Shown here: piece by piece, positions 18,901 to 61,872 of the stretch
How positions within the stretch are numbered: the stretch's first letter is position 1
How the letters are laid out: every line of letters begins with the position of its first letter
DNA from: Actinostola sp. cb2023
Lineage: Eukaryota > Cnidaria > Anthozoa > Actiniaria > Actinostolidae
Direction: 5' to 3'
DNA length: 64,000 bases
NCBI GenBank assembly: GCA_033675265.1
Contig: JAUJYZ010000126.1
Span: 1-64,000, forward strand
Made by a program: the position numbers and the translations under genes
Notes under the pieces: model-generated
Databases searched by the model: none
Seen by the model: the letters and a program-made list of their open reading frames with translations, nothing else
Told to the model about the DNA's origin: nothing

Positions 18901-19143
18901 AACTTCTGTCACCTTTTCACCTCTCACCTTTCATCACGTGCAACAACTGCCGCAAGGGATCATGGTCAGTTTAATACACCACAGGAATCCCAACATTATT
19001 GGTTTATTTTCAGTACTATATTCATTCTCGTACTCAGACCCTTCGCAGCTTTCTAACGAAAAATCGAAGGCTCTGTAGCCTGCGAACAGGCAGTCCAACC
19101 ATTGTTTCTGAACCTACTTTATATAAATAAAAGGATATTTCTA

Positions 19144-19188
19144 TGCGCGCGTCTTTTTATGGGTTTCCTGTGGTAGACCGCGCGCGCA
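19144..19188. repeat. GC-rich hairpin around GGGTTTCCTGTGG
   Basis: TGCGCGCG-TCT on the left pairs with AGA-CCGCGCGCGCA on the right; the loop carries GGGTTTCCTGTGG (19161-19173). One of a series of hairpins with this loop motif in the window. Confidence 0.6.
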
Positions 19189-19197
19189 ATATGTATT

Positions 19198-19284
19198 ATG
19201 TTGGGCTCCCTGTGTACGTCCCGCAAGGCGCGCCCGCCAAGGGTGCCCGCAGAGAGGGACGTGCACAGGGATCCCAACATATAT
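19198..19284. repeat. Inverted repeat with two GGG-TCCCTGTG boxes
   Basis: TATGTTGGGCTCCCTGTGTA at the left and its imperfect reverse complement (GTGCACAGGGATCCCAACAT) at the right enclose a GC-rich loop. Both arms carry the recurring GGGNTNCCTGTG box. Confidence 0.65.
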
Positions 19285-19397
19285 CTTATTGTTTCATGTT
19301 ACGCTAATTACGCCAAATGCTTCTGCTTTGAACACATGTATCTATATATCACACTTGTAACCCTGTATTCCTTGTCTTCACTGTAATCAAGTCAGTA

Positions 19398-21937
19398 TAG
19401 GGGCCTCACTAGCGTATAGGGTCTCACTAGGGTATAGGGGCCTCACTCACTAGGGCATAGTCTCACTAGGGTATAGGATCTCACTAGGGTATAGGGTCTC
19501 TCTAGGTTATAGGGTCTCACTAGGGTATAGGGTCTCACTAGGGTATAGGGGTCTCACTAGGGTATAGGGGTCTCACTAGGGTATAGGGGTCTCACTAGGG
19601 TATAGGGGTCTCACTAGGGTATAGGGGCCTCACTCACTAGGGCATAGTCTCACTAGGGTATAGGATCTCACTAGGGTATAGGGTCTCTCTAGGTTATAGG
19701 GTCTCACTAGGGTATAGGGTCTCACTAGGGTATAGGGGTCTCACTAGGGTATAGGGGTCTCACTAGGGTATAGGGGTCTCACTAGGGTATAGGGGTCTCA
19801 CTAGGGTATGGGGGTCTCACTAGGGTATAGGGTCTCACTAGGGTATAGGATCTGACTAGGCTAGGGTATAGGTCTCACTAGGGAATAGGGGTCTCACTAG
19901 GGAAGAGGGGTCTCACTAGGGTATCGGGGTCTCACTAGGGTATAGGGTCTCACTAGGGTATAGGGTATAGGGGTCTCACTAGGGTATAGGGTATAGGGGT
20001 CTCACTAGGGTATAGGGTCTCACTAGGGTATAGGGTCTCACTAGGGTATAGGGTCTCACTAGGGTATAGGGTCTCACTAGGGTATAGGGTCTCACTAGGG
20101 TATAGGGTCTCACTAGGGTATACGGTCTCACTAGGGTATAGGGTCTCACTAGGGAAGAGGGGTCTCACTAGGGTATCGGGGTCTCACTAGGGTATAGGGT
20201 CTCACTAGGGTATAGGGTATAGGGGTCTCACTAGGGTATAGGGTATAGGGGTCTCACTAGGGTATAGGGTCTCACTAGGGTATAGGGTCTCACTAGGGTA
20301 TAGGGTCTCACTAGGGAATAGGGGTCTCACTAGGGTATAGGGTCTCACTAGGGAATAGGGGTCTCACTAGGGTATCGGGGTCTCACTAGGGTATAGGGTC
20401 TCACTAGGGTATAGGGTCTCACTAGGGTATAGGGTCTCACTAGGGTATAGGGGTCTCACTAGGGTATAGGGGTCTCACTAGGGTATAGGGGTCTCACTAG
20501 GGTATAGGGGTCTCATTAGGGTATATAGGGTATAGGGGTCTCACTAGGGTATAAGGGTCTCACTAGGGTATAGGAGTCTCACTCACTAGGGCATAGGGTC
20601 TCACTAGGGTATAGGATCTCACTAGGGTATAGGATCTCACTAGGCTAGGGTATAGGTCTCACTAGGGAATAGGGGTCTCACTAGGGTATAGGGTCTCACT
20701 AGGGTATAGGATCTCACTAGGGTATAGGGTCTCACTAGGGTATAGGATCTCACTAGGGTATAGGGTCTCACTAGGGTATAGGGTCTCACTAGGGTATAGG
20801 GTCTCACTAGGGTATAGGGTCTCACTAGGGTATAGGGGTCTCACTAGGGTATAGGGGTCTCACTAGGGTATAGGGGTCTCACTAGGGTATAGGGGTCTCA
20901 CTAGGGTATAGGGGTCTCACTAGGGTATAGGGGTCTCACACTAGGGTATAGGGTCTCACTAGGGTATAGGGTCTCACTAGGGTATAGGGGTCTCACTAGG
21001 GTATAGGGGTCTCACTAGGGTATAGGGGTCTCACTAGGGTATAGGGTCTCACTAGGGTATAGGGTCTCACTAGGGTATAGGGGTCTCACTAGGGTATAGG
21101 GGTCTCACTAGGGTATAGGGGTCTCACTAGGGTATAGGGGTCTCATTAGGGTATATAGGGTATAGGGGTCTCACTAGGGTATAAGGGTCTCACTAGGGTA
21201 TAGGAGTCTCACTCACTAGGGCATAGGGTCTCACTAGGGTATAGGATCTCACTAGGGTATAGGATCTCACTAGGCTAGGGTATAGGTCTCACTAGGGAAT
21301 AGGGGTCTCACTAGGGTATAGGGTCTCACTAGGGTATAGGATCTCACTAGGGTATAGGGTCTCACTAGGGTATAGGATCTCACTAGGGTATAGGGTCTCA
21401 CTAGGGTATAGGGTCTCACTAGGGTATAGGGTCTCACTAGGGTATAGGGTCTCACTAGGGTATAGGGGTCTCACTAGGGTATAGGGGTCTCACTAGGGTA
21501 TAGGGGTCTCACTAGGGTATAGGGGTCTCACTAGGGTATAGGGGTCTCACTAGGGTATAGGGGTCTCACTAGGGTATAGGGTCTCACTAGGGTATAGGGT
21601 CTCACTAGGGTATAGGGGTCTCACTAGGGTATAGGGGTCTCACTAGGGTATAGGGGTCTCACTAGGGTATAGGGTCTCACTAGGGTATAGGGGTCTCACT
21701 AGGGTATAGGGGTCTCACTAGGGTATAGGGGTCTCACTAGGGTATAGGGTATAGGGGTCTCACTAGGGTATAAGGGTCTCACTAGGGTATAGGGTATAGG
21801 GGTCTCACTAGGGTATAAGGGTCTCACTAGGGTATAGGAGTCTCACTAGGGTATAGGGGTCTCACAGGTGTAGGGGTCTCACTAGGGTATAGGGGTCTCA
21901 CTAGGGTATAGGGATCTCGCTAGGGTATAGGGTCAGG
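19398..21937 (+). repeat. 18/19-bp G-rich satellite (~2.5 kb)
   Basis: About 135 units of GGGTATAGGGTCTCACTA (18 bp) or the 19-bp form with GGGG. Longer blocks are duplicated: a ~186-bp block (19441 and 19627, marker CTCACTCACTAGGGCATAG) and a 630-bp block (20521-20960 repeated at 21151-21590, markers GGGTATATAGGG and ATAAGGGTCTC). Minus-strand frames reading YPSETL repeats result from the 18-bp period and are not genes. The plus strand has G runs with loops of 4 and 8 bases. The array stops about 160 bp before the WD40-SOCS gene. Confidence 0.97.
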
Positions 21938-22095
21938 GGTTCCTATCTAGCGCTAGGAACTCTGTCGCGCAAAAAAATTCGTCAACGTTGGGATTCCTGT
22001 GTAAGGCCTGGCTACTCATCACAAACATTCAATAATATTTTGTACAGTTCTAGTAATCAAACGTTCGATCCCGCGGGGTATTTTGAATCAGCTTT

Positions 22096-23457
22096 ATGGG
22101 TTGTCATTCATCAACCCAGAGGGTAGAAAGCACTGAAGAACTGTCGAGTTGGAGTCGAACTTCCTTCCCACGTCTCTCTCTTCGCTCTCACCGTCCTTTG
22201 GCTTTGGCTATAAATCGCCACCATCATCAACTGTACGATGTTGTCATTCAACTAAAGCACGAAGACAAGGACATTTATGCGTGTTGTTTTCCTAGCGATG
22301 ACGATGGGGTATTACTGTCCGCGTCAAAGGTCGAACAAACGACATTTCTAAGGCACACTCGTGACTTCTCATCTATTCGATTATGGGATTTAAATAGACG
22401 GCAAATAAACACGGGATTTTTGGCCGATTTCCCTCGATCGTGTCGCTCGTGTGACTTTTCACCCGACGGACAGCTAGTAGTTTGTGTCTTCAGCGAGGAT
22501 TCGTTAGCCTTGGTTCGTATGCGGTCATGGAAAACCACCAGTGCTGAAGTCATCCATATGAGACGCATATGGCGCAGTCGGGGCACACTGCTGTGTTGTG
22601 CTTTCTCTCCCGAAGGTCGATCTATCGTCGTCGTGTCTCGATTATCGGGCGACACCAATCATATTTGCATGATTGATGTGAACTCGAGGAAGATGACAAA
22701 AAAGATGAGCCCAACGCTTTCGTCCAAAATTCGTGGCTTTGTCAAATCTTGTATATTTTCGCCAGACGGTCTGTTCTTGTCCGTGTCTACATCCAGCGGA
22801 CAGCTGATATTGTTTGACATTCAAGATTTTCATATTCACGAGAGTTTAGATCTCGAGAGCCAAGACAGTACGCCGTGCCTGTGTGATCCTTTCCGCCAGT
22901 CATCTAGACGCTCTATCACACTATCCATGCAATGTTGGTACTTGTTTGATCCCCGCTATGGGCACAAGTATTTGGCGTCGTGTATTGAGGACGGCACTAT
23001 CCAAACATGGACCATGAATGCTCACGAGCCGGGCTTGACTTGTATTCAGAGTGTGAATATTTTGCAAACCCCTTGGCAGAAAGTTTGTTCAGCAGCATTT
23101 TCACCAGATGGCTATATCCTTGCTATTGGAACATCAGATTCCAAGATCTTGTGTCTCAACTCCGAGAGCCTTGATTTAATATTTACGTTAAATGCCCATT
23201 TGCAGCCAGATGGATTGAGAACGTGGTATCCAAACACTGAAGTATCGTGCCTGGCATTCACTCGCACATGCCAACAGCTTGCAGCAGGGTATAATGACGG
23301 GAGAATAAGGATATGGCAGCTACCCCCCATCATCAACCTGCAACATATCTGCAGGCTCGTCGTCATAAAATACATTCCTGCCAATGAAATCCCAAAGCTG
23401 CCCCTGCCACCTCATCTGTTACGATACCTCCTATATTCCCCATTGAAACATATCTAA
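22096..23457 (+). CDS. WD40-repeat protein with C-terminal SOCS box (WSB-like)
   Basis: A single 453-residue frame without introns. WD40-type blades are visible by their ends: SIRLWDL (~93-99), ICMIDV (~190-195), LILFDI (~237-242), TIQTWTM (~301-307), ILCLNS (~351-356) and RIRIWQL (~403-409), with CDFSPDG, CIFSPDG and AAFSPDG at strand starts. Residues ~413-449 form a SOCS box: a BC box (LQHICRLVV, Leu415 and Cys419) for Elongin B/C and a Cullin-5-type box with LPLP at 435-438. The order WD40 then SOCS box and the length fit WSB1/WSB2, which are about 400-420 residues; known members recruit substrates to an Elongin-Cullin ubiquitin ligase. The start is supported by an in-frame TGA at 22084. 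The N-terminus MGCHSS fits N-myristoylation (Gly2, Ser6) plus palmitoylation (Cys3), which I do not know from WSB proteins. Orthology to WSB1 or WSB2 is inferred; other WD40-SOCS proteins are possible. Confidence 0.9.
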   Translation: MGCHSSTQRVESTEELSSWSRTSFPRLSLRSHRPLALAINRHHHQLYDVVIQLKHEDKDIYACCFPSDDDGVLLSASKVEQTTFLRHTRDFSSIRLWDLNRRQINTGFLADFPRSCRSCDFSPDGQLVVCVFSEDSLALVRMRSWKTTSAEVIHMRRIWRSRGTLLCCAFSPEGRSIVVVSRLSGDTNHICMIDVNSRKMTKKMSPTLSSKIRGFVKSCIFSPDGLFLSVSTSSGQLILFDIQDFHIHESLDLESQDSTPCLCDPFRQSSRRSITLSMQCWYLFDPRYGHKYLASCIEDGTIQTWTMNAHEPGLTCIQSVNILQTPWQKVCSAAFSPDGYILAIGTSDSKILCLNSESLDLIFTLNAHLQPDGLRTWYPNTEVSCLAFTRTCQQLAAGYNDGRIRIWQLPPIINLQHICRLVVIKYIPANEIPKLPLPPHLLRYLLYSPLKHI

Positions 23458-23913
23458 GTGGCCTATATGTAGCCTTCGCCGTCTGTACAGTCAAAAGTAG
23501 CTGCCTGTCCTGCCTCAACTAAATTTAAAAATCTGCCGAGAACCTTTATATGGGGGGTCAACAAGCTAAAATGCTCGCGGCGATCATGGTTCTCTCCAGC
23601 ACTTACAGTGTAAGTAAATGAGATGCATGAACAGGAAGAAATGGGAGATTTACTGGAATGAATTGTTATTGTCATGTAAGGAAAGAACAATAATTCTGGG
23701 ATAAGTTGTGATCAGAATCATTACAAGAGGGTTGTGGTATCATCGTGTATGGGATAACCAACTACGTAATAGGCTTTGAACACACTCCGACTTACAATTT
23801 TTTGAGGATTTTGGTTCTCACATGGAAAAAAATTTAGTCAACACTCTATTCTGGCAAAGTGGGCACCAAACGATCACTTCAATGCCTAACCCTACCATTC
23901 CCCTATCCACTTA

Positions 23914-24002
23914 GCCTGATTTTTGAGACGGCTCATGTGTCATACGCTGTTGCTCCCTCCCCAACCTGTTAGTATGACACATAAGCCGTCTGAAAATCGG
24001 GC
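23914..24002. mobile_element. 89-bp foldback MITE with TA flanks
   Basis: GCCTGATTTTTGAGACGGCT and TCATGTGTCATAC at the left pair with GTATGACACAT-AGCCGTCT and GAAAATCGGGC at the right; TA lies on each side. Confidence 0.75.
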
Positions 24003-24526
24003 TACTTTCCACTGAGCCACAAAGGCAATTCAATTCGCTTGGTTGCAACCATTTTTTGTTATATTTAAATAATGTGTCATTAGCCCAAAAGTATTATAAT
24101 CTATCATAGAGCTACGAACAGGTACTTCTATGAATTTGAATAGTAATTCCCCGAGGGTTCCCGTACATATACATGACAATTTTTCCATATATTAGCATTC
24201 ACTACTTGAACTGACTCATCAAAACACAAACCACTGAGACACTGTGTAATTTATTGATGTGTGAATTAATAATGTAAATAAGATAATTATTGTAATTGAA
24301 TTACAGAAAATTTGGAGGACATTTTGTGCTTGGTACACAATGCATGATATATGAACAAATGAAAATCTATAATAATATATAATACAAATGACTGCACTAT
24401 ATAATGCACTATATAAGAACGACCATTATTATTATTAAGTGACTGCACTATATGTATTAAACACAAGAATCTTCATAAAAGTATTAAAATATTAGTGTCA
24501 AAATGTAAATAGGTTTCCTCAAGCAA

Positions 24527-24586
24527 CGTGTTGTTGCTTGGCAACCTATTGTTGCTTGGCAGCCTATTGTTGCTTGGCAACTATTT
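24527..24586 (+). repeat. Three ~19-bp copies of TTGTTGCTTGGCAACCTA
   Basis: TTGCTTGGCAACCTATTG is repeated three times with one A/G change. TTGC-TTG-GCAA is itself a small palindrome. Confidence 0.8.
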
Positions 24587-24803
24587 AATTAGCACATGTA
24601 CATGCAAGCTTATTACGAATCTGTGTGAATAAAGTGATGATAAATAATAGCTTTATTCCATCATTTTATCTGATTACAACGCCTCGTGTTTTACATGTAC
24701 TAAATAGAAAAGAAAGCAAACTGTAGCAACTGACAATATAAAGTAAGGAATTCTAGCACTGTAAGTATCCCCATTTGTATACAAATGTAATGTCCACGCA
24801 TTA

Positions 24804-25022
24804 CAGTGTGGACACTCAAACCGTGAACACTTCAAGTTTTTTTCGAACTTTTTTATCTAAACTTTCTATTGCCTCATAGCCTCTCAAATGGAGCATTGTA
24901 ATTGAGTTTAAATACACTTAGTGATCAAAATAAATCATTTTTCTGATCAATTTTCTCAATCGATGATTTATATATATGTGTTAGAAAAAACCTAAGTGTT
25001 CATGGTTTGAGTGTCCATACTG
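24804..25022. mobile_element. 219-bp CAGT-ended MITE with TA duplication
   Basis: CAGTGTGGACACTCAAACCG at the left, and GGTTTGAGTGTCCATACTG at the right, flanked by TA at 24802 and 25023. Inverted similarity extends about 40 bp (GTGAACACTT / AAGTGTTCATG). CAGT ends with TA target suggest pogo-type mobilisation. Confidence 0.8.
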
Positions 25023-25154
25023 TAATTAAGCAGCACACAATATATCCAACAACATTTGACAGATAATGGTAGAGAGTTTTAATGACTATAAAATACTTGT
25101 TATAATAATAATTGTATTACTAATCTATAATAATAATGCATAATTATATTAGTT

Positions 25155-25500
25155 TGCCAACTAGTTGACCAAGTCAGTTGACAATAGGCAACTTGCACTA
25201 AATAAATAATAAAATCGATCGTTTTCTAAGATTTTGTTTGGAAAAATGCATTGGATGACAAGAGCCACTCCATCCAATGCATTTTCCAAACAAAATCTTA
25301 GAAAACGATCAATGTTATTTTTAATGCCATTTCTCCTGTGTCAGACATTATGCCTTGAAACTTCGCCCTTTTACTAATTTCGAGCTGCTCTTCATTTCTG
25401 GAGTTCATTTTGACATTGCTGTTTGTTTTATGGGAGTTAGGGTCACGTGACCTCTTAGTGCAAGTCGCCTATTGGTCGTCTAACAGCTGACTATTGGTAG
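25155..25500. repeat. Outer inverted repeat around a hairpin
   Basis: AGTTGACAATAGGCAACTTGCACTA-like sequence at 25175-25200 faces TTAGTGCAAGTCGCCTATTGG at 25456-25477. The strong hairpin at 25218-25310 sits between them, so this looks like a degraded element with a younger one inside. Confidence 0.45.
25218..25310. repeat. Near-perfect 40-bp hairpin
   Basis: The left arm starts GATCGTTTTCTAAGATTTTG and ends GCATTGGATG; the right arm is its reverse complement apart from one A in an A5/A4 run. The loop is 12 bases (ACAAGAGCCACT). Transcription of either strand would give a long, near-perfect stem. Confidence 0.9.
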
Positions 25501-25603
25501 ACAGTTGGTAGCATGTTGGTACTGAAAACTTGGCTTGTTGGGAGACTAGTCGGTCAACAGACGTGTTGTCAGCCTTTCTTGGTACTTAATTCTCTACCAT
25601 TTA

Positions 25604-25720
25604 ACAATTAGACTACGAGTTCGAGTTTTCTATGAGTCAATAGTCAACGAGGCACGTAGCGTCAAGTTGACTATTTGACCTCATAGAAAACGAGAATGAG
25701 TAGTCTAATTGTTTTAGTAG
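25604..25720. repeat. ~115-bp imperfect hairpin
   Basis: ACAATTAGACTACGAGTTCG and TTTTCTATGAGTCAATAGTC pair with GTTGACTATTTGACCTCATAG and GAGTAGTCTAATTGT. Likely a foldback MITE. The following stretch (25721-26315) shows only a short TACTCACTA / TAGTGAGTA palindrome. Confidence 0.6.
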
Positions 25721-27050: not shown

Positions 27051-27054
27051 TATC

Positions 27055-27600: not shown

Positions 27601-27604
27601 GAAT

Positions 27605-30569: not shown

Positions 30570-31470
30570 CAACCTCGTCCCCAGGGCCCTCTCTTCTCGC
30601 TTTCAAAATGGCGGACGCTCGAGAGAAGACCCTGGTGTAGGCTGAACTAAAACGCATTTTGATTGGATAACACAAAAAGCCATCTAATTGGTCCATATCG
30701 AAGGTTGCTAAATATAGCATAAATTAAAATTCGATTCGCATCGAGTGAATTTATAGTTTCAACGGATAGTTCTTTTCTGGTCCTAAATGTATCGAATTAG
30801 GAAGATCGAAGCCACTGCAAGCCGGATGTGTGAGTGTTATCGAAGCATTGAAATGTCTTTAGGAACATGAAAAAGTCCACCGATCGAGATCGTTTACCGT
30901 AAAGCAAGGTATCAATTTATACGAGCAAGCTAGACTACTGACGGCGACACGGCAAACTCGGCTGATATATTATTGTCGTTGTTTACATAATTTGCTAGTG
31001 CTCTTGAGATTTGCAGTATGTGACACGTCAATCCACGTCAACATGTTTTGTACTTTAGCCGTTAGAGATGAAAGGTGTTTGTATACAAATAGCGAATAAA
31101 CTGTCGATCTGACCTGTTCCGGTTGTAATGTGTTTCATTAATTACACTTCCGAACCCCTATTTTTCAAATGGCCAGAATTGCTCCAGGTGATTTTATTTA
31201 TTATTTGAGGCAAAACAATCGCAACATCAGAACGAACGTATTTTCTTCAGTAACTCTTCACAAGGAGGCCCTTTCGATTACTTTCGACTAGCCTCCGCAA
31301 CTCTATCAGACGGGTTTTCTGTGGCGCTGCATGCGGAGGCTAGAAAATGGCAGCCTGGGTACGAACCTCCAAGATTCTTGGAGACACGTGACCAGCCTAC
31401 ACCAGGGTCTTCTCTCGAGCGTCCGCCATTTTGAAAATAGCGAGAAGAGAGGGCCCTGGGGACGAGGTTG
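30570..31470. mobile_element. 901-bp CAACCTCG-ended element with 9-bp duplication
   Basis: Inverted ends of about 85 bp start CAACCTCGTCCCCAGGGCCC and include TTCAAAATGGCGGACGCTCG. The 9-bp GTTGTTAAT is duplicated at 30561-30569 and 31471-31479, and copy A shows the uninterrupted site. A second, partial copy lies at 47630-48098 on the other strand. The 9-bp duplication suggests a hAT- or Mutator-type mobiliser; no transposase is present. Confidence 0.9.
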
Positions 31471-31803
31471 GTTGTTAATCCCCACACAGCTAAACCACAC
31501 ACACAGGAAACCCACAACCTCATCCCCAGGGCCCTCTCTTCTCACTGTTTTCAAAATGGCAGACACTCGTTCCAAATAAAACCACGCAACTCGGATAAAA
31601 CCCTGAAAGCAAGGCTAGAAAGATGCCTAAATGAATTGTAAATGTGTATACAGCTATTTCAAAAAACGTTGTCCTCTGCTTCGTGCGTATTGCGCATTGC
31701 GTTTTGCATATGATTATTATTTATACTGAGAATCATTTTTCTACTCACTGAATGTCGACAAACCAAATAACTTTCCATCAAAGCCAATCACTATATAATA
31801 TAC

Positions 31804-32806
31804 GGGTGTTCGGAAAAACTAAGACCCTAAGATCCTAAGACCCTAAGAAATTATAAAATGTCCAAATCAGGCAAATCCAATGTTCTGTACTTTAATAAAA
31901 AAAGAAGAGAACAGAGGAAAGGCTGTGTTCGCACCACGTTTAGCTTCAAAATTCCATGAGTTTCTCTGCCGTCTTGAGCCGGTGATAGTTGGTTCGATGA
32001 TATCGAATAGGACTTAAAATATCCTGTCTTTTCGGCTTTCCATGAATAAAACCACCCCCAGAATAACAGTTTCTTACTTTGAGGAGTAAAATTCATGTGT
32101 CCAGTGGTTTTCCAGTGGCAGTTTTTCAAATCAGTTGGCAAGATAAGTTTTTACGGATAGTCAGTAGCCGCCATATTTAACACAGGTAACCCAAACATAA
32201 TTATGCCCTACCACAGGAAACCCATAGAGCCGGTCCTAATGGAAGGAAACAGCGTTCCTCCTTTAGACTTATCAACCAAATGAACCATACGCAGTTTAAA
32301 ACATCAAGAAGATGGATTTAATATGTAAATATGTCATTCAAGAATGAAATTAACTAAGGTTGGAAGAATAGTTCTTTGTATATCCCTGTGTGTATGGGTT
32401 ACCTGTGTCAAAGATGGCGGCTGCTATTAAAAAACATGACTTATCTTGACTGATTGATTTGAAAAACTGCCACTGGAAAACCACTGGATACGTGAATTTT
32501 ACTCCTCAAAGTAAGAAACTGTTTTACTTGGGGGTGGTTTTATTCATGGAAAGCCGAAAAGGTCGAAAAGACAGGATATTTTAAGTCCTATTCGGCATAT
32601 CATCGAGCCCGGCAATTTATCACTCAAACTTTTTTGAACAAGCTGAGCTGAACGTCACCCAATTAATATTAAAGTACAGAACATTGGATTTGCCTGATTT
32701 GGACATTTTATAATTTCTTAGGGTCTTAGGGTCTTAGGGTCTTAGGGTCTTAGGGTCTTAGGGTCTTAGGGTCTTAGTTTTGGGGGTCTTAGTTTTCCGA
32801 ACACCC
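31804..32806. mobile_element. 1003-bp Mutator-like foldback element, 10-bp duplication
   Basis: Ends GGGTGTTCGGAAAAACTAAG and the reverse complement, arms of about 400 bp (for example CAGGCAAATCCAATGTTCTG, AACCACTGG, GGCGGCTAC boxes) and a ~190-bp loop. The 10-bp TATAATATAC is duplicated at 31794-31803 and 32807-32816. Long inverted ends with 9-11 bp duplications fit Mutator-like non-autonomous elements. Confidence 0.88.
32717..32777 (+). repeat. TTAGGGTC octamer repeat
   Basis: Seven to eight TTAGGGTC units close to the right end of the foldback element; the left end has only three (31820-31850). It resembles telomeric TTAGGG but has an 8-bp period. Confidence 0.85.
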
Positions 32807-39137: not shown

Positions 39138-39190
39138 TGTATCGTGAGTGAATAGCTTTGGGCTTCCTGTGGTTTATTGCCCGCGATACA
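39138..39190. repeat. Hairpin around GGGCTTCCTGTGG
   Basis: TGTATCG pairs with CGATACA; the enclosed sequence carries GGGCTTCCTGTGG at 39160-39172. Confidence 0.5.
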
Positions 39191-41849: not shown

Positions 41850-42337
41850 AAGATACACCACAGGGACCCCGTCATTAATTGACTTCACTGTGTTACAGTG
41901 TACCCCATGACACGTACATTACAGGCAACCCATCATTATTTGACTTTACTGAGTTACAGTGTACCTCATGACACACCACAGGGAACCCATCGTTATTTGA
42001 CTTTTCTGTGTAACAGTGTACCCCATGACACAGGAGGGAACCCATCATTATTTGACTTTACTGTGTTACAGTGTACCCCATGACACACCACAGGGCACCC
42101 ATCATTATTTAGCTTTACTGTGTTACAGTGTACCCCATGACACATCACAGGGAACCTATCATTATTTGAATTTACCGAGTTACAGTGTACCACATGACAC
42201 ACCAGAGGGAACCCATCATTATTTGACTTCACTGTCTTACAGTGTACCCCATGACACATCACAGGGAACCTATCATTATTTGACTTTACTGTGTTACAGT
42301 GTACCCCATGACACATCACAGGGAACCCATCATTATT
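41850..42337 (+). repeat. 57-bp minisatellite, first block (about 8 units)
   Basis: The unit consists of GAACCCATCATTATTTGACT, TTACTGTGTTACAGTGTACC and CCATGACACACCACAGG. As 57 is a multiple of 3, one frame per strand stays open with a 19-residue period (VPHDTSQGTHHYLTLLCYS on plus, MCHGVHCNTVKSNNDGFPV on minus). Not a gene in my judgement. Each unit contains the complement of GGGTTCCCTGTGG. Confidence 0.95.
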
Positions 42338-42745
42338 AGTCGGGCTTCCTGTGGAAGACCCGACTCTAGAAATGAGAAGCGTTCTTCGTCGACCCCAGAA
42401 AGCATATTGGGCTCTACAGCGCATGCGCCCTGTGTCGGCCGCTAAGATAATCACCGAAGGCTCAAACTACATGGCTTATCAAGACGAGACATCGCATGTC
42501 TTTCTTCAGAAACCTTGTCGAAGGAAGGTTAATATGTCATCTTGTTTAAGCTTATATTTGTATTTGGTATGGATATATTTATGGCACCAAATAAACTATT
42601 GTCATTTCTATGATTCGCTGAGTTTGTGAAATCGATTTTACAAAGAAAGCATGTTCTAACGAGTCATGCATAATCACCCAAGGCTCCGTAAACAATATGG
42701 TTTCTTCACAATGGTTACTAGTATGTCGTCTTGTTTTTTATTATT

Positions 42746-43759
42746 AGTCGGGCTTCCTGTGGAAGCCCCGACTCTAAAAATGCAGTTTGTTCGTCTTCTT
42801 AGGCTTCAAATCGACATGTCACATTACAGGCGTTCCTTGTTTGTTGGCGCGGGGATTGGGGCGAGAGGAATGGCTTCTTCAACACCATTCTCGTACCCAG
42901 AGCCCGCTCGTCATTTGGTTTGTCGCTGGCTCTGGGAAACCCTGTTGCTCGGTCGTCAAATTTTGACGACCAAGTCGTCAGAGCGCATGCTCATACTAAA
43001 GACCGCTGAGAGCGGGTACTGTGGAAGAGTCTACTGGCTACGTAGTATTTACGTTGGTTTGAATATTCAAACTAACAAGTACACAAGTTTGTACATTTAT
43101 CTTCGTGTAGCCGTTTTTTAAAATCCCTTCGACGTTCATCACCGGTTCTTCTCTGGCTCTGTTGCGGTAAAGGCTGGACGATAAATACATGTTCTAATAT
43201 AATCTTGCATGTGAACCTTCCTGTCTTCCGCTTTGTTATTGTTTCTCTTGAATTATAAAAATATTCCTTTGAATACTCAAAGCGAGTACGATCGATTGTG
43301 TCTGTAGCCGTTACTTTACTTTTATAATTTATGTATTGTTAGATCTCCCTTTACGAATTCAGATCAATTTATGTCTACACAGTCACTCTCATTTCCATAG
43401 CTTTATAATTCAATAACGGAATACCATTGTATGAAAATACAACCGTCGCTGTCATTCCTTTCGTTCGCCTTGCAAGTTTGAATCTTTGTTGATCTCATGA
43501 ACCAATCAAATACGATCAGTCATTGTTGATTTCATCAGCCAATGAAATTTGCTAAAATTTCAGGGATTCCCAGAGCCAGCGACAAACCAAATGACGAGCG
43601 GGCTCTGGGTACGAGAATGCTTCAACACGAGACATCAGTTGGCCTCTTTCTTCACAAACAAATCAGATTGCTCTGTTTTAATCGCACTGCGATATCTATA
43701 TTTAGTTCAAATAGGCTATATGAGTTAGAAGCCCCACTTCACGCTAGTAGAGCGTCTAG
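42746..43759 (+). mobile_element. Copy 2, nested inside copy 1
   Basis: Starts with the same hairpin, AGTCGGGCTTCC-TGT-GGAAGCCCCGACT, and ends ACGCTAGTAGAGCGTCTAG. Without the MITE inside it is about 270 bp. A third end, inverted, lies at 43928-43954. Confidence 0.75.
42886..43619. mobile_element. 734-bp MITE with 9-bp duplication, innermost insertion
   Basis: Ends CATTCTCGTACCCAGAGCCC with about 53 bp of inverted similarity (CTCGTCATTTGGTTTGTCGC). CTTCAACAC is duplicated at 42877-42885 and 43620-43628. Its interior has no transposase. Confidence 0.92.
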
Positions 43760-45928: not shown

Positions 45929-47061
45929 GGTTCAATAAAATACAACATCATATTTGGTCAACCAATAATATACACAGATGATTATGGCTGTAGTAATGGC
46001 TGTTCTTCTATGTACATCAATACCGGTTTAACTGACAACATGGATGATGCAAGTCAACCACATCCAACAGTTGTAGGTGATAGTAGTCATAATTCAGTTA
46101 ATACAGTTGGGAATTCGTTGAAAAATGCTTCTGCTGTCCACGTGGATGAACGTTTATCAATGTTGAGTATTTTAGAGGAATTAGATTTACCCTCTGAAAA
46201 GGAATCAGTTGAAAACAGCACTCAAGCAACATATTCATCCACTGATAATGCTATTTCACATTCTCAAGAGATTGTGGAAAGTCACCTTCATGAAAATGGC
46301 AAACACACTGGAGAGAAGCCATTTGGATGTTCTTACTGTGTTAAAAAATTTAGTTTCAAAAGCCATCTCACTGCTCATCTCAGAATTCATACTGAGGAGA
46401 GAAGCCATTTGAATGTTCTTACTGTGATAAAAAGTTTGGCCACAAAAGCCATCACACTGCTCATCTCAGAATTCATACTGGAGAGAAGCCATTTGAATGT
46501 TCTTACTGTGATAAAAAGTTTGGCCTCAAAGGTTATCTCAAATCTCATCTCACAATTCATACTGGAGAGAAGCCATTTGGATGTTCTTACTGTGATAAAA
46601 AGTTTGGCCGCAAAAGCTTTCTCACTGCTCATCTCAGAATTCATACTGGAGAGAAGCTATTTGAATGTTCTTACTGTGATAAAAAGTTTGGCCAGAAAGG
46701 CGATCACACTGTTCATCTCAGAATTCATACTGGAGAGAAGCCATTTGAATGTTCTTACTGTGATAAAAAGTTTTGCCGCAAAAGCTTTCTCACTGCTCAT
46801 CTCAGAATTCATACTGGAGAGAAGCCATTTGAATGTTCTTACTGTGATAAAAAGTTTTGCCGCAAAAGCTTTCTCACTGTTCATCTCAGAATTCATACTG
46901 GAGAGAAGCCATTTGAATGTTCTTACTGTGATGAAAAGTTTTGCCGCAAAAGCCTTCTCACTGCTCATCTCAGAATTCATACTGGAGAGAAGCCATACAA
47001 ATGTATTTCTTATGCCAAGACATTTCGGCACCAAGCATCCATCACAAGGCATAGTTGCTGA
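45929..47061 (+). pseudogene. C2H2 zinc-finger exon with a 2-nt frameshift
   Basis: After the acceptor the frame reads GSIKYNIIFGQPIIYTDDYG, an acidic low-complexity stretch (LEELDLPSEKESVENS) and a first finger, CSYC...HLTAHLRIH. At about 46394 two extra bases (ACTGAGGAGAG where other linkers have ACTGGAGAG) shift the frame; the following seven canonical fingers and one degenerate finger (second Cys replaced by Tyr, last His lost) lie open in the +2-shifted frame and end at TGA 47059-47061. Without the shift the exon would give nine fingers with [15 protein letters not shown] linkers, a DNA-binding nuclear protein. The unshifted frame runs to 47083 as nonsense repeats ([14 protein letters not shown]). 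Recent pseudogene or sequence error; the rest is intact. Confidence 0.85.
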
Positions 47062-47630
47062 GCCATCAGGAGAGAATAAGTAATTATGTTCACAATAGAC
47101 CTTTAGTCCGTACTACACATTCATTCATTTCTTTTAATCAACGCATTGAGTAACAATAGTTACAACCATTCAATAAATGAACTAGAATAATATTTACAAA
47201 AGTACAAACAAACTATATACAGTAAATAAATAGATAATTATATAAATATTTTATTTATTTAAACGACAAGACATTTGTAATTCTTCCCCCTAGCTTGTCA
47301 ACGTTGGTCAATATTTTGATAGTTCACTGCTTCCCTGTGGCGGTACGAACGAACGCCTAACACTAAATAAACTGTTCTGGTGTCCCTAGAACCATCGTAT
47401 ATTGACCATTGTTTATAGCTATTGTATAGTAATGTATGGTAATGTGATTACGTGAAATGCAGGATCCCTGTGCTGTTGTCCAAGATGAAAAGGCAAGAAA
47501 TTCGGTTAAGAATCAATCAAAACACAGCACAATATAGTTTTCTCTCCTATCGATAATTCGTGTTTCTAAGTAATATTTGTCTAACATTTGTCTAAGTGCT
47601 TTGCCTCGATCCATTATAGAATACATTGCA
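47062..47630. other. 3' flank of the finger exon
   Basis: AT-rich, with an AATAAATG site at 47171. No further gene is seen. Confidence 0.45.
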
Positions 47631-54699: not shown

Positions 54700-56260
54700 T
54701 TATTAAATCGCCCATCATTCAGCAACGTGTCAATGATACGAGGTATACGCTGTGTTCTATACCAGATACGTGAAGATCAAATTACAAGAACATCGCCCAT
54801 CATTCAGCAACGTGTCAATGATACGAGGTATACGCTGTGTTCTATACCAGATACATGAAGATCAAATTACAAGAACATCGCCCGTCATTCAGCAACGTGT
54901 CAGTGATACGAGGTATACGCTGTGTTCTATACCAGATACGTGAATATCAAATTACAAGAACATCGCCCATCATTCAGCAACGTGTCAATGATACGAGGTA
55001 TACGCTACGTTCTATATACCGGCCATGCAGATACGTTAAGATCAAATTACAAGAACATCGCCCATCATTCAGCAACGTGTCAGTGATACGAGGTATACGC
55101 TACGTTCTATATACCGGCCATGCAGATACGTTAAGATCAAATTACAAGAACATCGCCCATCATTCAGCAACGTGTCAATGATACGAGGTATACGCTGTGT
55201 TCTATACGAAATACGAGAAGATCAAATTACAAGAACATCGTCCATCAATCAGCAACGTGTCAATGATACGAGGTATACACTGTGTTCTATACCAGATACG
55301 TGAAGATCAAATTACAAGAACATCGCCCATCATTCAGCAACGTGTCAATGATACGAGGTATACGCTGTGTTCTATACCAGATACGTGAAGATCAAATTAC
55401 AAGAACATCGCCCATCATTCAGCAACGTGTCAATGATACGAGGTATACGCTACGTTCTATATACCGGCCATGCAGATACGTTAAGATCAAATTACAAGAA
55501 CATCGCCCATCATTCAGCAACGTGTCAGTAATACGAGGTATACGCTGTGTTCTATACCAGATACGTGAATATCAAATTAAGAACATCGCCCATCATTCAG
55601 CAACGTGTCAATGATACGAGGTATACGCTGTGTTCTATACCAGATACGTGAAGATCAAATTACAAGAACATCGCCCATCATTCAGCAACGTGTCAATGAT
55701 ACGAGGTATACGCTGTGTTCTATACCAGATACGTGAAGATCAAATTACAAGAACATCGCCCGTCATTCAGCAACGTGTCAGTGATACGAGGTATACGCTG
55801 TGTTCTATACCAGATACGTGAATATCAAATTACAAGAACATCGCCCATCATTCAGCAACGTGTCAATGATACGAGGTATACGCTACGTTCTATATACCGG
55901 CCATGCAGATACGTTAAGATCAAATTACAAGAACATCGTCCATCAATCAGCAACGTGTCAATGATACGAGGTATACACTGTGTTCTATACCAGATACGTG
56001 AAGATCAAATTACAAGAACATCGCCCATCATTCAGCAACGTGTCAATGATACGAGGTATACGCTGTGTTCTATACCAGATACGTGAAGATCAAATTACAA
56101 GAACATCGCCCATCATTCAGCACCGTGTCAATGATACGAGGTATACACTGTGTTCTATACCAGATACGTGAAGATCAAATTACAAGAACATCGCCCATCA
56201 TTCAGCAACGTGTCAATGATACGAGGTCTAAACTGTGTTCTATACAAGATACCGCATAGT
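54700..56260 (+). repeat. 85-bp minisatellite (about 18 units)
   Basis: The unit is ACATCGCCCATCATTCAGCA, ACGTGTCAATGATACGAGGT, ATACGCTGTGTTCTATACCA and GATACGTGAAGATCAAATTA, then CAAGA. Some units carry a longer ACGTTCTATATACCGGCCAT form. Blocks of several units are duplicated: 54870-55045 recurs at 55750-55920. Confidence 0.95.
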
Positions 56261-57300
56261 TCCGAAAATAGCGACCCCCCGAAAGTAACAGTAAAAATAT
56301 ACACGGTTTGAGTTGTTTAGACACCGCTGTACTTCTTGATAAAAGACGCGTTTGCTCAGGCTTAGCCTCAATCCAGAAAATATCCCGTACAATTAAACAT
56401 GATATCTAGTGGTGAAAATGATACCACAAAATACGTACTGATAACTGTATTTCTATAACTATAATTCAGTTATTTTTTGCTGTTAAATACGTACTGCCCC
56501 CCTTGAATGTTGGGTTATGTACGGCCCTGGAAGATACAGCAAAATGGTATGTCCTTATGCAAAGTTGCAGACGCCGATATAACCCTCTCGAGCTCCGAAA
56601 TGAGTGTTATGAGACAAATAATCTAGCTAGTGCCACTTTGACAATAAGGTTTTACAACAATATCGGTATTTCATTTCTAGAACATATGGTTACATAAGAT
56701 AGATACATTCTATATTCTTGAACTTTGGAACTTCTTCCAATTTAGAATTGTGATCACCTTATTATGTTATCCAATTACACAAACAGTAACTAGCGATTAG
56801 TACACTTTGATAGACAGGAGTTGATGAACTCACTATTAAGAACTGCTATCTGATTGGTCAAAACATTCGTATCCAGTCTTCCAATGTATTTGCGGCACAG
56901 ACCGATCCATGTCAGAACTGTCAGAACGACATTCAAAGTTATTTGAAACTTTTCTATCAATTCTGACTGAGCAATTTTATATCTACAACAGGAGAGCTGA
57001 GTTTGTGTCGAGGAATTTACCAATCATACTGTTGCTATGGTGAAGAATGGGAAATGGATTGCGGATGGGGAGGCGCATGCTCTGATTGGTCAATAATTGC
57101 ATAATATGTCAATAATTGAAATCAAAACAATAACAAACGCCCGCAAAGCATGTCGGTCGACAGAGAGTCTTTAATATAGGTCAAGTTTTAAGGTATTTCA
57201 TACAGAAGTGTCGTGTATTCAAACAATCACGATCCTAGCCTCCGTGACCTGACTAAATAGCACGCGCAACATAAAACACAGGAAGCCCAATATTAGTGTT
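56261..57300. other. Spacer, nothing recognised
   Basis: No domains or repeat pairs. CACAGGAAGCCC at 57277 is a reverse copy of the GGGCTTCCTGTG box, close to the end of the finger exon. Confidence 0.45.
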
Positions 57301-57305
57301 ACTGG

Positions 57306-58160
57306 CTACTCGCAGTACTCGCCTAATGGCTCGCAGCAACTATGCCTTGTGAAGGATTGTTTGTGCCGAAATATCTTGTAACAAGAAAGACATTTGTATG
57401 GCTTCTCTCCAGTGTGAATTCTGAGATGAATGGTAAGATTGCCTTTACGGAAAAACTTTTTATCACAGTAAGAACACTGAAATAGCTTCTTTCCAGTATG
57501 AATTCTGAGATGCATTGTAAGATTGCTTTTCTGGCCAAACTTTTTATCACAGTAAGAACATTCAAATGGCTTCTCTCCAGTATGACTTTGTAAATGCCTT
57601 GTAAGGGACATTTTGTAACGAAATGTCTTGTCACAAAAAATACATTTGTATGGCCTCACACCAGTATGAATTCTGAGATGAGTTGTGAGAATGTGTTTCC
57701 GGCCATACTTTTTACCACAGTAAGAACATTCAAATGGCTTCTTTCCGGTGTGTTTGCCATTTCCATGAAGGTGACTTTCCACACTCTCTTGAGAATGTGA
57801 ATTAACATCATCGGTGGTTGAATCTGTTGCTTGAGTGCTGTTTTCAACTGATTCCTTTTCAGAGGGTAAATATAATTCCTCTAAAATACTCAACATTAAT
57901 GAATGTTCATCCATGTGGACAGCAGAAGCATTTTTCAACGAATTCCTATCAACTGCATTAACTGAATTATGACCACTATCACCTACAACTGTTGGATGTG
58001 GTTGACTTGCATCATCCATGTTGTTGTCAGTTAAACCTGTATCGATGTACATAGAAGTACATCCATTACTACAGCCATAATCATCTGTCTGTGTTGCAAT
58101 ACTACAGAGTTCCTTGTATATTATTGGTTGACCAAATATGATGTTGTCTTCTACTGAACC
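57306..58160 (-). CDS. C2H2 zinc-finger exon, intact paralogue
   Basis: On the minus strand an acceptor (GTACTTCATTTCAG) precedes the exon at 58160. The frame gives about 284 residues. The first part (GSVEDNIIFGQPIIYKELCS) is followed by an acidic region with LEELYLPSEKESVENS. Then come four canonical C2H2 fingers (linkers [32 protein letters not shown]) and a fifth that ends HSCC instead of H-x3-H. It is collinear with the exon at 45929 but has four finger units fewer and an in-frame 9-residue insertion (KELCSIATQ). In-frame differences suggest the sequence was under coding constraint. Probable role: sequence-specific DNA binding in the nucleus. The 5' exon is not found up to 64000. Confidence 0.88.
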   Translation of the reverse strand, partial: GSVEDNIIFGQPIIYKELCSIATQTDDYGCSNGCTSMYIDTGLTDNNMDDASQPHPTVVGDSGHNSVNAVDRNSLKNASAVHMDEHSLMLSILEELYLPSEKESVENSTQATDSTTDDVNSHSQESVESHLHGNGKHTGKKPFECSYCGKKYGRKHILTTHLRIHTGVRPYKCIFCDKTFRYKMSLTRHLQSHTGEKPFECSYCDKKFGQKSNLTMHLRIHTGKKLFQCSYCDKKFFRKGNLTIHLRIHTGEKPYKCLSCYKIFRHKQSFTRHSCCEPLGEYCE

Positions 58161-58320
58161 CTGAAATGAAGTACAAGAACAATATATCAATGTATATCAA
58201 TATAAAAAAACAGACTCACTTTACATACTCTTTGTAATATACAGGGTTTTTGTTAAGTTTTACTGATTAGAAAAACAGACACAAATTTAACAGCCTCGAT
58301 TGTGAGTGAAAAGTCGTTAG
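58161..58320 (-). other. Duplicated intron flank of the finger exon
   Basis: Minus-strand TTGATATACATTGATATA and GTGTCTGTTTTTCTAA match the intron before 45929. Confidence 0.6.
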
Positions 58321-59560
58321 TACTGACTATCTCGTTAGTGAGTGTAGTCATGTAAAAAAAAAAATTGTTTATCGTGTCAATCAATGTAGCATTACTTACT
58401 GCTAATTGGGGACACGAGTCTCACACTCACTTCTTACTACATTCTATACTAGTCATTTCTGGTAGAAAGTGAAGTGTGCGAGTTGTGCACTGCCGTACAT
58501 GTAGCTTTCAATGCATACATGTGGCTCTGTTTCTTGTCAGCGAGGCGCATTTAGTTGTAAAATAAAATAATAAAATGCAGTATAATAATAATAATAACTT
58601 TATCACTGTGTCATGTGTTCTAGCTTACAAGAAACTAATTCGAGACACCTATCATATCAAACTTATGTCCTGCATCATTGAACATTTGCTCCTGTTGGGA
58701 TCCAGTATCACGCGGACAACGTTTTTTGTCAATGCTTTGTTTACTAATGCACGTGAGGCCCGATTGATCCAGCAATTTGTTCACTATGACCGCTAAATAA
58801 AGCAGATTCGTACGTGACTGGTTTATCATTTCTGAATTCATATTTTTCCTTTGACAATGTGTAAATCAGGTAGCTAAAATATAAGAGAGGATGGAAAAGC
58901 TGCATATGTTTCCTCAACGGGAAAATATATCACAAATTCGAACTTACTTATTGATCTCGTGCGTGTAAATATTGGAAATTGCCTTCAAAAAACGTCCTTG
59001 CCGAGCCATAATTTATTTGCGAATTCGCAGGCCTATGTAGCTTCTACATACAGACCGAGATATACAGAGCACCAATATGATGTTCACAATTACCAAACAA
59101 AGAGTTTTAGATTTCATTTTGCCACCGCTTAATTAAGTTTAATATACATGTATTTTATATCAAAATGCGCGTACAATTACAGAGCATTAGAATCCGGCGG
59201 TAGGTTTTTGATTGACACAATTCCCAAAGAATTCAGAGGGATTTTGTGTGCAGCGTATGTCACGCTCTCCTATATCTCTTCAGAGATTTCAGTTCGATTG
59301 ACTTTGAAGAAACGGAAAATGCCACCTTCAAACCTCTTTATTTGTGCTTGAATTGCCAGCTTATTCATTCCTTACATATTCGTCTTTGATATTCCGTTGG
59401 TAGGTTTTTGATTTGTATTTTAACAATGCAGTAAAAAGCAAAAATGTATCAAAATCATGCTGTTTTTCGCCTAAACAAGACTCGCCTCATCTGCATATGT
59501 GAAACAATGACCTTTTGTATAACATAAGTTTGATATGTATACCCACTAAAATCCCCTCCC
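58321..59560. other. AT-rich spacer with a possible LINE tail
   Basis: At 58578-58605 (TAATAATAATAACTTTAT) a tail like that of the 37.6-kb LINE occurs on the minus strand, but no reverse transcriptase residues are seen next to it. Otherwise nothing recognised. Confidence 0.35.
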
Positions 59561-59562
59561 CC

Positions 59563-59692
59563 TCCCATATCTCTACTGATTCTCATTCCCACCCTTGTCC
59601 CATTGTTCCCATCCCACATCTCCATTGATTCCCATTCCCGTCCCGGTCACATTGTTTCATTCCATGTCTCTATTAATTCTCATTCCCACCCG
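59563..59692 (+). repeat. ~45-50 bp minisatellite, about 3 units
   Basis: CATATCTCTACTGATTCTCA, TTCCCACCCTTGTCCCATTG and later variants (ACATCTCCATTGATTCCCA; ATGTCTCTATTAATTCTCA) form three units. Confidence 0.8.
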
Positions 59693-59778
59693 AGTTTCTA
59701 TATCATTAAAATGGTGTATTGTGTTGCTTAATACAAATGCTAACACGTCTATAATAATCTGGTCATTGACATGTACCA

Positions 59779-59839
59779 GCACTAAAAGCATGCAATACTT
59801 TGCACTATTTATGTTGCACGCTTGTAATAGTTTGTACTC
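59779..59839. mobile_element. GAGTAC MITE family, truncated copy 4
   Basis: GCACTAAAAGCATGCAATAC, TTTGCACTATTTATGTTGCA and TTTGTACTC match one end and subterminal boxes of the family; the other end is missing. Confidence 0.65.
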
Positions 59840-60017
59840 TACTGATATGCAGTAATTAATACAAATATGGATTCAATGCAATAGAGAATTGTGTTTGGTG
59901 TATATTATATACAATGTTACTGGCCAGATATCAGGAAAGATGTCGAAGCCTCATAGCACACTTGTAGAAGATAAAAGTACACCAGGATGGAACGTATAAT
60001 TTGATTCAGTAGTTGCC

Positions 60018-60357
60018 TCAATGCCAAAGGCATGGGCCGGATTGGTTTGACGAAGACCAACGAGCTCGATCAGGTAGATAGGTCAGCGTCTCTGTATCTG
60101 GGATACTGTGTCTTTCAAAGCATTCAAGTACATGCTGTCTCCTTCGGTCAACTCTGATCAACTGTAGAACAGATAGAAGTACTGGACGCGACTGAGCACA
60201 CATCTTCCCCTTGAAATGTCACTAAATTGTTCGTGACCTTGATGAATGCTTCCAGCAATGAATAAAGTTGCATCATGGATTTGTAGAAAACGAACACTTT
60301 CCTGGCTTGAATCAGCGAAAAATAAACGATACTCCAGCCAGTATATCGATTGAACAT
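60018..60357 (-). other. Possible coding remnant, two overlapping frames
   Basis: On the minus strand a frame with LIQARKVFVFYKSMMQLYSL and AFIKVTNNLVTFQG overlaps a second one (MCAQSRPVLLSVLQLIRVDR). The residue mix is protein-like, but no family is recognised. A frameshifted relic or chance are both possible. Confidence 0.2.
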
Positions 60358-60442
60358 GTTGTGTGTGCGCTGATCAAAAGTACCGTGGGCTCACAAAAAT
60401 CATCTCCACAAACCCACAAACTCTGTGAAATCTTGTCGAGAC

Positions 60443-61872
60443 AAGGGAGCACGGCGGAAACTGGGCTGCCTGTGGTGAGGACGCGTTTTGCATTTGATCA
60501 TGCGCGCGCGGGCTCATCAGTAAATTGGGATTCCTGTGGTTCACGCTGACGTTTTGCGGTTATTCACAATATGATAGCGCGGCTCATAAACAAAGAAAAC
60601 GTATAGTATCGTCAGTAATAAAATGACGGGGAGTGAAACTAAGATCATGTGATCGATTCTCAGCCATTCAGAGAAGAGAATCATGGAAATCCTTTGTAAC
60701 ATGCTCGTAACGTTACTTTTGGTCAGCAGTTAATCGATGACAGCTATCAAAGCATTACTCTCCCTCCCCTCCCTTGAGAGTCTTTTCAGCAAAACATTTA
60801 ACATTTCTGAAATAAATTTTCCGTACGCGACATCAGTTTCCCTTTTGATTTTGCGTTTGTTTTGAATCATGAAATGTACTTTCATCAGTTACAGCCAAGG
60901 GTACAGCATTGTCATTTGAGAAAGAAAGGAGTAGGAAAAGCATTTTTATTAATGCAAATCTAGCCTGCGTTACATCCGAATTGGCAAATCATAAACGAGA
61001 AAACTGGAGAAAAAGGTCGAAAGTGTTTCCTAACAGCATCAACTGGACTTGCATGCGGCGACCCACATCGAAGGACGGTGTCACACTTTACAAAACAAAA
61101 AGAAAAAAACAGTGCAATTAAATACATGAAGGATACTTGAGCTTCACTACGAGGCGTCCAAAGATATTCACTTTCGCTGGACTGAGACCTAGTTTATTAC
61201 AATGAAAAGCGTACACATACGTACGTTTCGTCTACAGACGTGATGTTTTCGCAGGAAAATGCAAACAAGGATCGTATTAAGTCTGTAAAACAGCAAGACA
61301 AGTCCTTTATGCTTTAGTACTCTTCCCGGTACTTTTGTGGGCAAGCACAATCGATCAACAACAACTCAGTATTTTTCTGAGTCTTTTTACACTTGATGAA
61401 ACAACAAACTCATTTCGTAAGCCGGTAAGTCATTTTTTCGCCTCTACGCTAAACTGAACATACAAACAAATGATAAAAGTCAAGAAAAAAATATGCAGAA
61501 AATTGTATTTACAGACCTTGGTACACATTTCGTCGTCGCATCGTCGGCCTCCATGTTTTTCTCCCTACGAAACTGTTCGTAAAACCGTCGGCCTCCATGT
61601 TTTTCTCTGTACGAAACTCGGGCTGTTCCTAGCAACGGCGATGTTCCTAGCATTCTGACGCGGATTGTCGAAAGGGTCTTACAAGTTTCACTCCCCGTCA
61701 CTTTATTTAGGCAGCCATATTTATTCAGTATTGATGAGCCCGCGCGATCTTATTGTGGAAAACCGCAAAAACGTCAGCATTAGCCACAGGGATCCCATAC
61801 TGATGAGCCTGCGCGCAAAAACCTCTAAGCGCGTCATCACCACAGGCAGCCCAGTTTCTGCCGTGCTCCCTT
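60443..61872. mobile_element. 1.4-kb element with ~155-bp inverted ends
   Basis: CAAGGGAGCACGGCGGAAAC at the left is mirrored by GTTTCTGCCGTGCTCCCTTG at the right. Each arm carries two boxes of the GGGNTNCCTGTGG type (60463, 60527 and, inverted, 61784, 61840) and a GCGCGCGGGCTCATCA stretch. The interior has a 70-codon lysine-rich frame (60909-61121) without a recognised domain. Confidence 0.75.
61540..61622 (+). repeat. ~46-bp direct duplication
   Basis: CGTCGGCCTCCATGTTTTTC is present at 61541 and 61587, each followed by TACGAAACT. Confidence 0.85.

What the first reader, a model, noticed from the sequence alone, without database searches (positions are those of the whole stretch)
18979..61852. 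Recurring hairpin-associated motif GGGNTTCCTGTGG
The 13-mer GGG(C/T/A)TTCCTGTGG, or a one-base variant, occurs at about 15 dispersed sites on both strands: 18979, 19161, 19203, 19264, 21990, 32211, 39160, 41827, 42342, 42750, 57277, 60463, 60527, 61784, 61840. It is also in every unit of the 57-bp minisatellite. Neighbouring sequences differ, but in several cases the motif is the loop or inner stem of a hairpin with a different stem (AGTCGGG/CCCGACT, TGTATCG/CGATACA, TGCGCGCG/CGCGCGCA). A conserved core in changing stems is unlike ordinary transposon copies. It could be a shared transposase or replication-initiation site used by several element families, or a structured RNA or protein-binding site.
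Basis: partly seen in the sequence, partly recalled or inferred. Interest (0 to 1): 0.75.

Follow-up and report, generated by a model that had tools for sequence, protein, structure and literature searches.

The report
Shared ends of many jumping elements
A 12-letter DNA word that recurs across a sea-anemone-like genome is, where its surroundings could be resolved, most often the end signal or an inner repeat of small jumping elements that are otherwise unrelated and seem to be moved by one shared kind of enzyme.

Summary
The motif is real and very abundant: 21,300 exact GGGNTTCCTGTGG in the 424-Mb host genome against 18 for the reversed control. The host is a sea-anemone-like cnidarian. The true unit is TTGGGNTNCCTGTG, reverse CACAGGNANCCCAA. 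It is the terminus of inverted-repeat DNA transposons: alignments between copies stop most often exactly at its last base, and the 8 end pairs that match beyond the motif all have 7-bp target duplications, in five families alike only in this motif. In family A a second copy sits 63-84 bp inside 20 of 25 ends. Stems across the motif are not commoner than at random positions, though commoner than with re-paired flanks; the AGTCGGG/CCCGACT hairpin belongs to a SINE-like family. Many contexts stay unassigned. Verdict: an unusually large and diverse variant of a known kind.

The parts
18979..18991 (-). Motif copy (CACAGGAATCCC on +) in a repeat related to L044 and L046; in those two the motif is followed by GTATTAC
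19086..19291 (+). Partial family-A element: end at 19086 (mutated), subterminal motifs 19161 (+), 19203 (+), 19264 (-)
21990..22002 (+). Motif GGGATTCCTGTGT, context not assigned
31416..31569 (.). Palindrome, 55-bp arms 91% complementary, 44-nt loop holding one motif (31502-31513, -)
31804..32806 (.). 1,003-bp foldback element, ends GGGTGTTCGGAA, exact 10-bp target duplication TATAATATAC, motifs near the inner ends of its arms (32181, 32212, 32396)
39160..39172 (+). Exact motif, context not assigned
41855..42337 (-). 57-bp minisatellite, 8.4 units, 3 with the exact 12-mer
42337..42367 (-). 3' hairpin of SINE-like family B, motif inside the stem
42745..42775 (-). 3' hairpin of a second family-B copy, followed by TAATAATAA
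44158..45542 (-). 57-bp minisatellite, 24.1 units, 16 with the exact 12-mer GGGTTCCCTGTG
57276..57288 (-). Motif copy GGGCTTCCTGTGT beside a GCTGCGAGC-type sequence
60442..61873 (.). Inverted-repeat element about 1.43 kb, ends CAAGGGAGCACGGC; motif about 21 and 85 bp inside the left arm and in the right arm (60463, 60527, 61785, 61841); target duplication unclear

Best explanation
The motif, read as CACAGGNANCCCAA, is the outermost sequence of several families of non-autonomous inverted-repeat DNA transposons (MITEs and foldback-like elements) and, in family A, also a repeated subterminal site. A shared transposase is inferred to bind it, cut at the C of CACAGG and insert the element into a palindromic target, preferentially GTYNRAC, which is duplicated as 7 bp (rarely 8). 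Shown: the end position, the 7-bp duplications, the unrelated interiors, the subterminal array of family A, the target preference and the copy number. Inferred: binding by a transposase, and that it is a P-superfamily (Galileo-like, THAP) transposase. Motif copies with no recognisable second end would be subterminal copies, decayed ends and captured or tandemly amplified pieces; this too is inferred. I put about 0.9 on 'terminal and subterminal site of 7-bp-duplication transposons' and about 0.6 on the P superfamily.
For: Alignments between copies that span the motif end at its last base in 514 of 2,937 cases; next commonest 249 at the following base; family A contributes much. Of 107 outward pairs of exact motifs, the 8 that match beyond the motif all have a 7-bp duplication (6 exact, 2 with 6 of 7); no pair matches fully at 5, 6 or 8-12 bp; 5 families (L052 and L054 may be one duplicated locus). 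With up to 2 mismatches in the motif: 11 rows, about 9 loci, against 3 in a shifted control, of 483 pairs. CACAGGNAGCCCAAGC: 7,272 copies, control 0; of 31 neighbours under 3 kb among the first 100 places 23 face outward and all 23 share the same variable bases, 2 of the other 8 do. Family-A end: 1,995 exact copies; 6 of 11 candidate pairs share exactly 7 bp. Target GTYNRAC over 65 distinct flanks, some being two ends of one element (G at 1 p 3e-6, C at 7 p 1e-6, T at 2 p 0.006, A at 6 p 0.04), against Galileo GTANTAC/GTATTAC, 7 or 8 bp (PMC4168063 abstract and passages). First inner motif at 63-84 bp in 20 of 25 family-A ends against the Galileo THAP footprint +63 to +80 (PMC3688188 section 12). 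GGGxT fits part of the THAP consensus TXXGGGX(A/T) quoted in PMC3464256. 35 P-transposase RNaseH matches, open frames up to 846 aa, none in 14 control genomes.
Against: No transposase was found between two motif ends. The one subtype whose places could be compared with P-transposase places (CACAGGGAGCCCAAGCTA, 960 copies, first 100 listed) lies within 5 kb of 1 of the 10 P matches on the contigs covered (a weak one on C5) and shows no outward pair under 3 kb. T at -3, asked by the THAP consensus, is not enriched (24 of 86). 38 of 211 sites matched nothing else in the sample, and only a minority have a paired end. Four of the five families with duplications have only the terminal motif. 5 of 11 family-A pairs lack an exact 7-bp duplication (one has 6 bp; two reuse an end with a better partner; one has inverted flanks). 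The window foldback 31804-32806 carries the motif but has a 10-bp duplication, and a SINE-like family carries it in its 3' hairpin.
Confidence: 0.68

Rival explanations
1. The same terminal and subterminal site, but of another or an undescribed transposase superfamily that also makes 7-bp duplications (Dada and some hAT-like groups were considered from memory).
For: No transposase tied to the ends; hAT domain PF05699 could not be searched; ends CACAGG resemble hAT CAGG ends recalled from memory.
Against: Length 7 with one 8-bp case, the GTYNRAC palindrome, long foldback arms and inner sites at about 70 bp all agree with Galileo (PMC4168063, PMC3688188); P-type transposases with long open frames are present.
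Confidence: 0.25
2. A host DNA-binding protein site (transcription factor or genome-architecture protein) that mobile elements picked up and spread.
For: The motif is sharply bounded, occurs in elements with different duplications (7 bp, 10 bp) and in a SINE-like family, and 38 of 211 sites had no match in the sample.
Against: It is exactly the cut end of several families, with the duplication starting at the next base, which a host site would not explain.
Confidence: 0.05
3. A structured RNA: the motif is a loop or stem that is cleaved or bound as RNA.
For: Family B: 16 aligned copies end in a hairpin with the motif in the stem; two pairs change on both sides. Stems exceed the re-paired-flank control (17 against 10.3).
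Against: Covariation in B is not clearly beyond shuffles (47 of 500 reach the score); no Rfam match in the window at gathering scores; stems across the motif are not commoner than at random positions.
Confidence: 0.02

Closest known systems
Galileo (P superfamily, Drosophila)
   Same: 7-bp (rarely 8-bp) target duplications, palindromic GT...AC target, long foldback inverted repeats, inner transposase sites at about 70 bp and in tandem repeats (PMC4168063 abstract and passages; PMC3688188 abstract, passages, section 12)
   Different: Here the terminal and the inner motif are the same 12-mer, several families share it, copy number is in the thousands, and no transposase has been tied to it
P-element MITEs of Anopheles gambiae
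   Same: Several MITE families of different interior related to P subfamilies (PMC1562414 abstract and passages)
   Different: 8-bp duplications, P ends of 27-31 bp, 5-310 copies per family; here 12-16 shared end bases and far more copies
Pdre2 / zebrafish THAP9
   Same: P-type element with short ends starting CA and subterminal repeats (PMC10983969 passages)
   Different: End CATACCTGTCAAC, 8-bp duplication
CMITEs of Acropora corals
   Same: Cnidarian MITEs, some in tandem arrays (PMC2872659 abstract and passages)
   Different: TTAA duplications, piggyBac-like; conserved interior and variable ends, the reverse of this case

Membership tests
P superfamily (Galileo-like) | P-type transposase (THAP, RNaseH, GTP-binding insertion) encoded between the ends | tested here: inconclusive
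P superfamily (Galileo-like) | 7- or 8-bp target duplication | tested here: met
   one 8-bp case L089/L090 read by eye
P superfamily (Galileo-like) | Palindromic target GTANTAC | tested here: met
   GTYNRAC over 65 flanks; position 3 differs (C or T, not A)
P superfamily (Galileo-like) | Inner THAP sites near +63 to +80 and in repeats of the arms | tested here: inconclusive
   position agrees in family A (20 of 25 ends); four of the five families have only the terminal motif; binding not testable
P superfamily (Galileo-like) | Site fits TXXGGGX(A/T) | tested here: inconclusive
   with an open middle, T at the fifth base in 89 of 92 sites; T at -3 in only 24 of 86
hAT superfamily | 8-bp target duplication | tested here: not met
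   0 of 8 at 8 bp; one 8-bp pair (L089/L090) seen; hAT transposase search did not complete
SINE (family B only) | 3' hairpin and short repeated tail | tested here: met
   hairpin in the 16 aligned copies (a few are shifted by an insertion or deletion), TAATAA after it in 8 of 16, long TAA array in L091; a LINE 3' end would look the same
SINE (family B only) | Pol III head and target duplications | not tested
   shared upstream sequence varies from about 25 to 600 bp between copies; no head was looked for

The most novel reading that the evidence does not exclude
One 12-bp code, CACAGGNANCCC, is used across classes of mobile DNA in this animal: as cut end of 7-bp-duplication transposons, as inner site of a 10-bp-duplication foldback element and as part of a SINE-like 3' hairpin, because one host or transposase DNA-binding protein acts on all of them or because ends are repeatedly captured and reused as new element ends.
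Probability: 0.12. Interest if true: 0.75.

Novelty: new variant of a known kind. Interest (0 to 1): 0.42.

Why it matters
If the ends are moved by one P-type transposase, this genome shows how little sequence (12-16 bp plus a target preference) is needed to recruit unrelated DNA into a MITE swarm of many thousand copies, with near-identical arms (99.2% over 494 bp in L023) that suggest recent movement or arm conversion. It would extend Galileo-style rules from flies to a cnidarian and give a test bed for how inner sites and satellites arise from transposon ends.

Tried and rejected
Rejected: general hairpin association (with the reservation that re-paired flanks give fewer stems); Rfam RNA; chance; an ETS-type reading of CACAGGAAG (the middle bases vary); the 5.1-kb family-A pair on C28 as autonomous element (1 kb of its middle has no frame over 109 aa; its flanks agree over 6 bp only; the rest of it was not read); CACAGGGAGCCCAAGCTA as the end of the autonomous element (first 100 of 960 places). 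A regular-expression search for THAP domains in the loci then fetched found nothing. Protein-family scans of 17 frames from the loci and window gave no P transposase. The L070 region holds two head-to-head repeats of about 930 bp that begin at the motif; no convincing target duplication was found.

Not answered: hAT PF05699, PF21789, a genome count of family B, and pattern CACAGGTAGCCCAAGCTG.
Full report
What was checked. The whole genome, 424 Mb in 1,594 contigs, has 21,300 exact 13-mers against 18 for the reversed pattern. A protein of the window (22096-23454, WD40 repeats with a SOCS box) is 77% identical to Nematostella vectensis over its length, 80% to Exaiptasia over 69%, and 85-87% to three unnamed entries, so the host is probably an anemone-like hexacorallian.

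What the unit is. With the middle left open, GGGNNNCCTGTG has T at the fifth base in 89 of 92 sites, and a spacer of 3 between GGG and CCTGTGG occurs in 65 cases against 0-3 for each other spacer from 0 to 6. From the window and the loci then at hand (20 pieces of 10 kb, 40 smaller pieces, 8 loci, one of which repeats part of L026; minisatellite units and sites near piece ends or N left out) I took 219 sites of GGGNTNCCTGTG. They fall into 86 contexts with dissimilar flanks. Outside the fixed letters, information is confined to positions -2 to +14: TT before GGG, then after CCTGTG G (57 of 86), T (49), A (43); the rest is at background. This is not one repeat family.

It is a transposon end. 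Alignments between copies that span the motif stop at its last base in 514 of 2,937 cases, more than at any other place printed (family A contributes much). Among 107 outward pairs of exact motifs, 8 have inverted repeats that match beyond the motif, and all 8 are flanked by a 7-bp direct repeat (6 exact, 2 with 6 of 7); no pair matches fully at 5, 6 or 8-12 bp. They are family A (L018, L052, L054, L055), L017, L023, L026 and L064, alike in CACAGGNAGCCCAA and little more; L052 and L054 may be one duplicated locus. Arms reach 494 bp at 99.2% identity (L023). Allowing mismatches gave 11 rows, about 9 loci, against 3 in a shifted control. Genome-wide, CACAGGNAGCCCAAGC occurs 7,272 times (control 0). 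Among its first 100 places 31 neighbours lie within 3 kb; 23 face outward and all 23 carry the same variable bases, whereas 2 of the other 8 do.

Target. The 21-bp end of family A occurs 1,995 times. Of the 100 places listed I kept 67 after dropping repeats of two satellite arrays. Of 11 candidate pairs, 6 share exactly 7 bp, one 6 bp, four none, two of these four reusing an end that has a better partner. One failing pair, C28:72711/73124, has inverted flanks. Over 65 distinct flanks the duplicated 7-mer prefers GTYNRAC (the flanks are not all independent, since some are two ends of one element). One pair read by eye (L089/L090) has 8 bp.

Inner copies. In 25 family-A ends, the first inner motif starts 63-84 bp inside in 20, further in in 4 and is absent in 1; in most ends with three motifs the next follow after 38-44 and then 30-31 bp. 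The other four families have only the terminal motif inside the element. Part of the units of the window's 57-bp minisatellite carry the motif, and family-A ends form 88- and 119-bp arrays elsewhere.

Comparison. Galileo, P superfamily, has 7-bp, rarely 8-bp duplications with consensus GTATTAC or GTANTAC (PMC4168063, abstract and passages) and a THAP footprint at +63 to +80 with further sites in arm repeats (PMC3688188, abstract, passages and section 12). The quoted THAP consensus TXXGGGX(A/T) (PMC3464256, one passage) fits GGGNT but not the -3 T. The genome has 35 matches to the P-transposase RNaseH domain PF21787, best E 8.8e-25, eight of them in open frames of 532-846 aa without a stop, and none in 14 control genomes. 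I could not read their flanks. Membership is thus likely but untested at its defining point.

What does not fit yet. A 1,003-bp foldback element of the window (31804-32806) has an exact 10-bp duplication and carries the motif near the inner ends of its arms. Family B, 16 aligned copies including window 42342 and 42750, ends in a hairpin AGTCGGG-CTTCC-ACA-GGAAG-CCCGACT, followed by TAATAA in 8 of 16 and by a long TAA array in L091, a SINE- or LINE-like 3' end; its stem shows two pairs with changes on both sides, not clearly beyond shuffles. The first 100 of 960 places of CACAGGGAGCCCAAGCTA show no outward pair under 3 kb. Thirty-eight of 211 sites had no other match in the sample. Whether these share the motif by descent from transposon ends or for another reason is open.

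Hairpins. A perfect stem of 7 bp or more across the motif is found at 17 of 88 de-duplicated sites against 15.6% of random positions and 10.3 expected with re-paired flanks. Two long stems exist (window 31502, L016), too few for a rule.

Print. Paper searches for P elements, MITEs or THAP transposases in cnidarians or anemones listed no title or abstract start that mentions such a motif; apart from the papers cited, whose passages I saw, the texts were not read, and Repbase was not available.

Noticed in passing
window 31804-32806: Foldback element whose arms hold CTAAGACC tandem repeats near their outer ends, with an exact 10-bp duplication TATAATATAC; superfamily not determined.
   Followed up: partly
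window 402-5041: 25-bp tandem array of about 186 units that is open over long stretches in several frames.
   Followed up: no
window 19395-21932: 19-bp tandem array GTATAGGGGTCTCACTAGG, about 136 units.
   Followed up: no
window 46010-47083 and 57306-58190: Two related frames with 84-bp repeat units that read like C2H2 zinc fingers (not scanned against Pfam).
   Followed up: no
window 22096-23457: Frame with WD40 repeats and a SOCS box, 77% to Nematostella.
   Followed up: partly
G000:C30:530235-532924 and C62:165741-166750: Family-A transposon ends amplified as 88- and 119-bp arrays.
   Followed up: no
L098, G000:C28:72711-73153: Family-A copies whose flanks are inverted repeats of each other instead of direct duplications, as if the palindrome had grown outward.
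   Followed up: no
L023 4397-4413: An element inserted with its duplication GTGTTAC overlapping the GTG end of another motif copy, i.e. into or beside an older end.
   Followed up: no
L019 1409-4651 (-): One frame with a protein kinase domain followed by a DEAD-box helicase.
   Followed up: no
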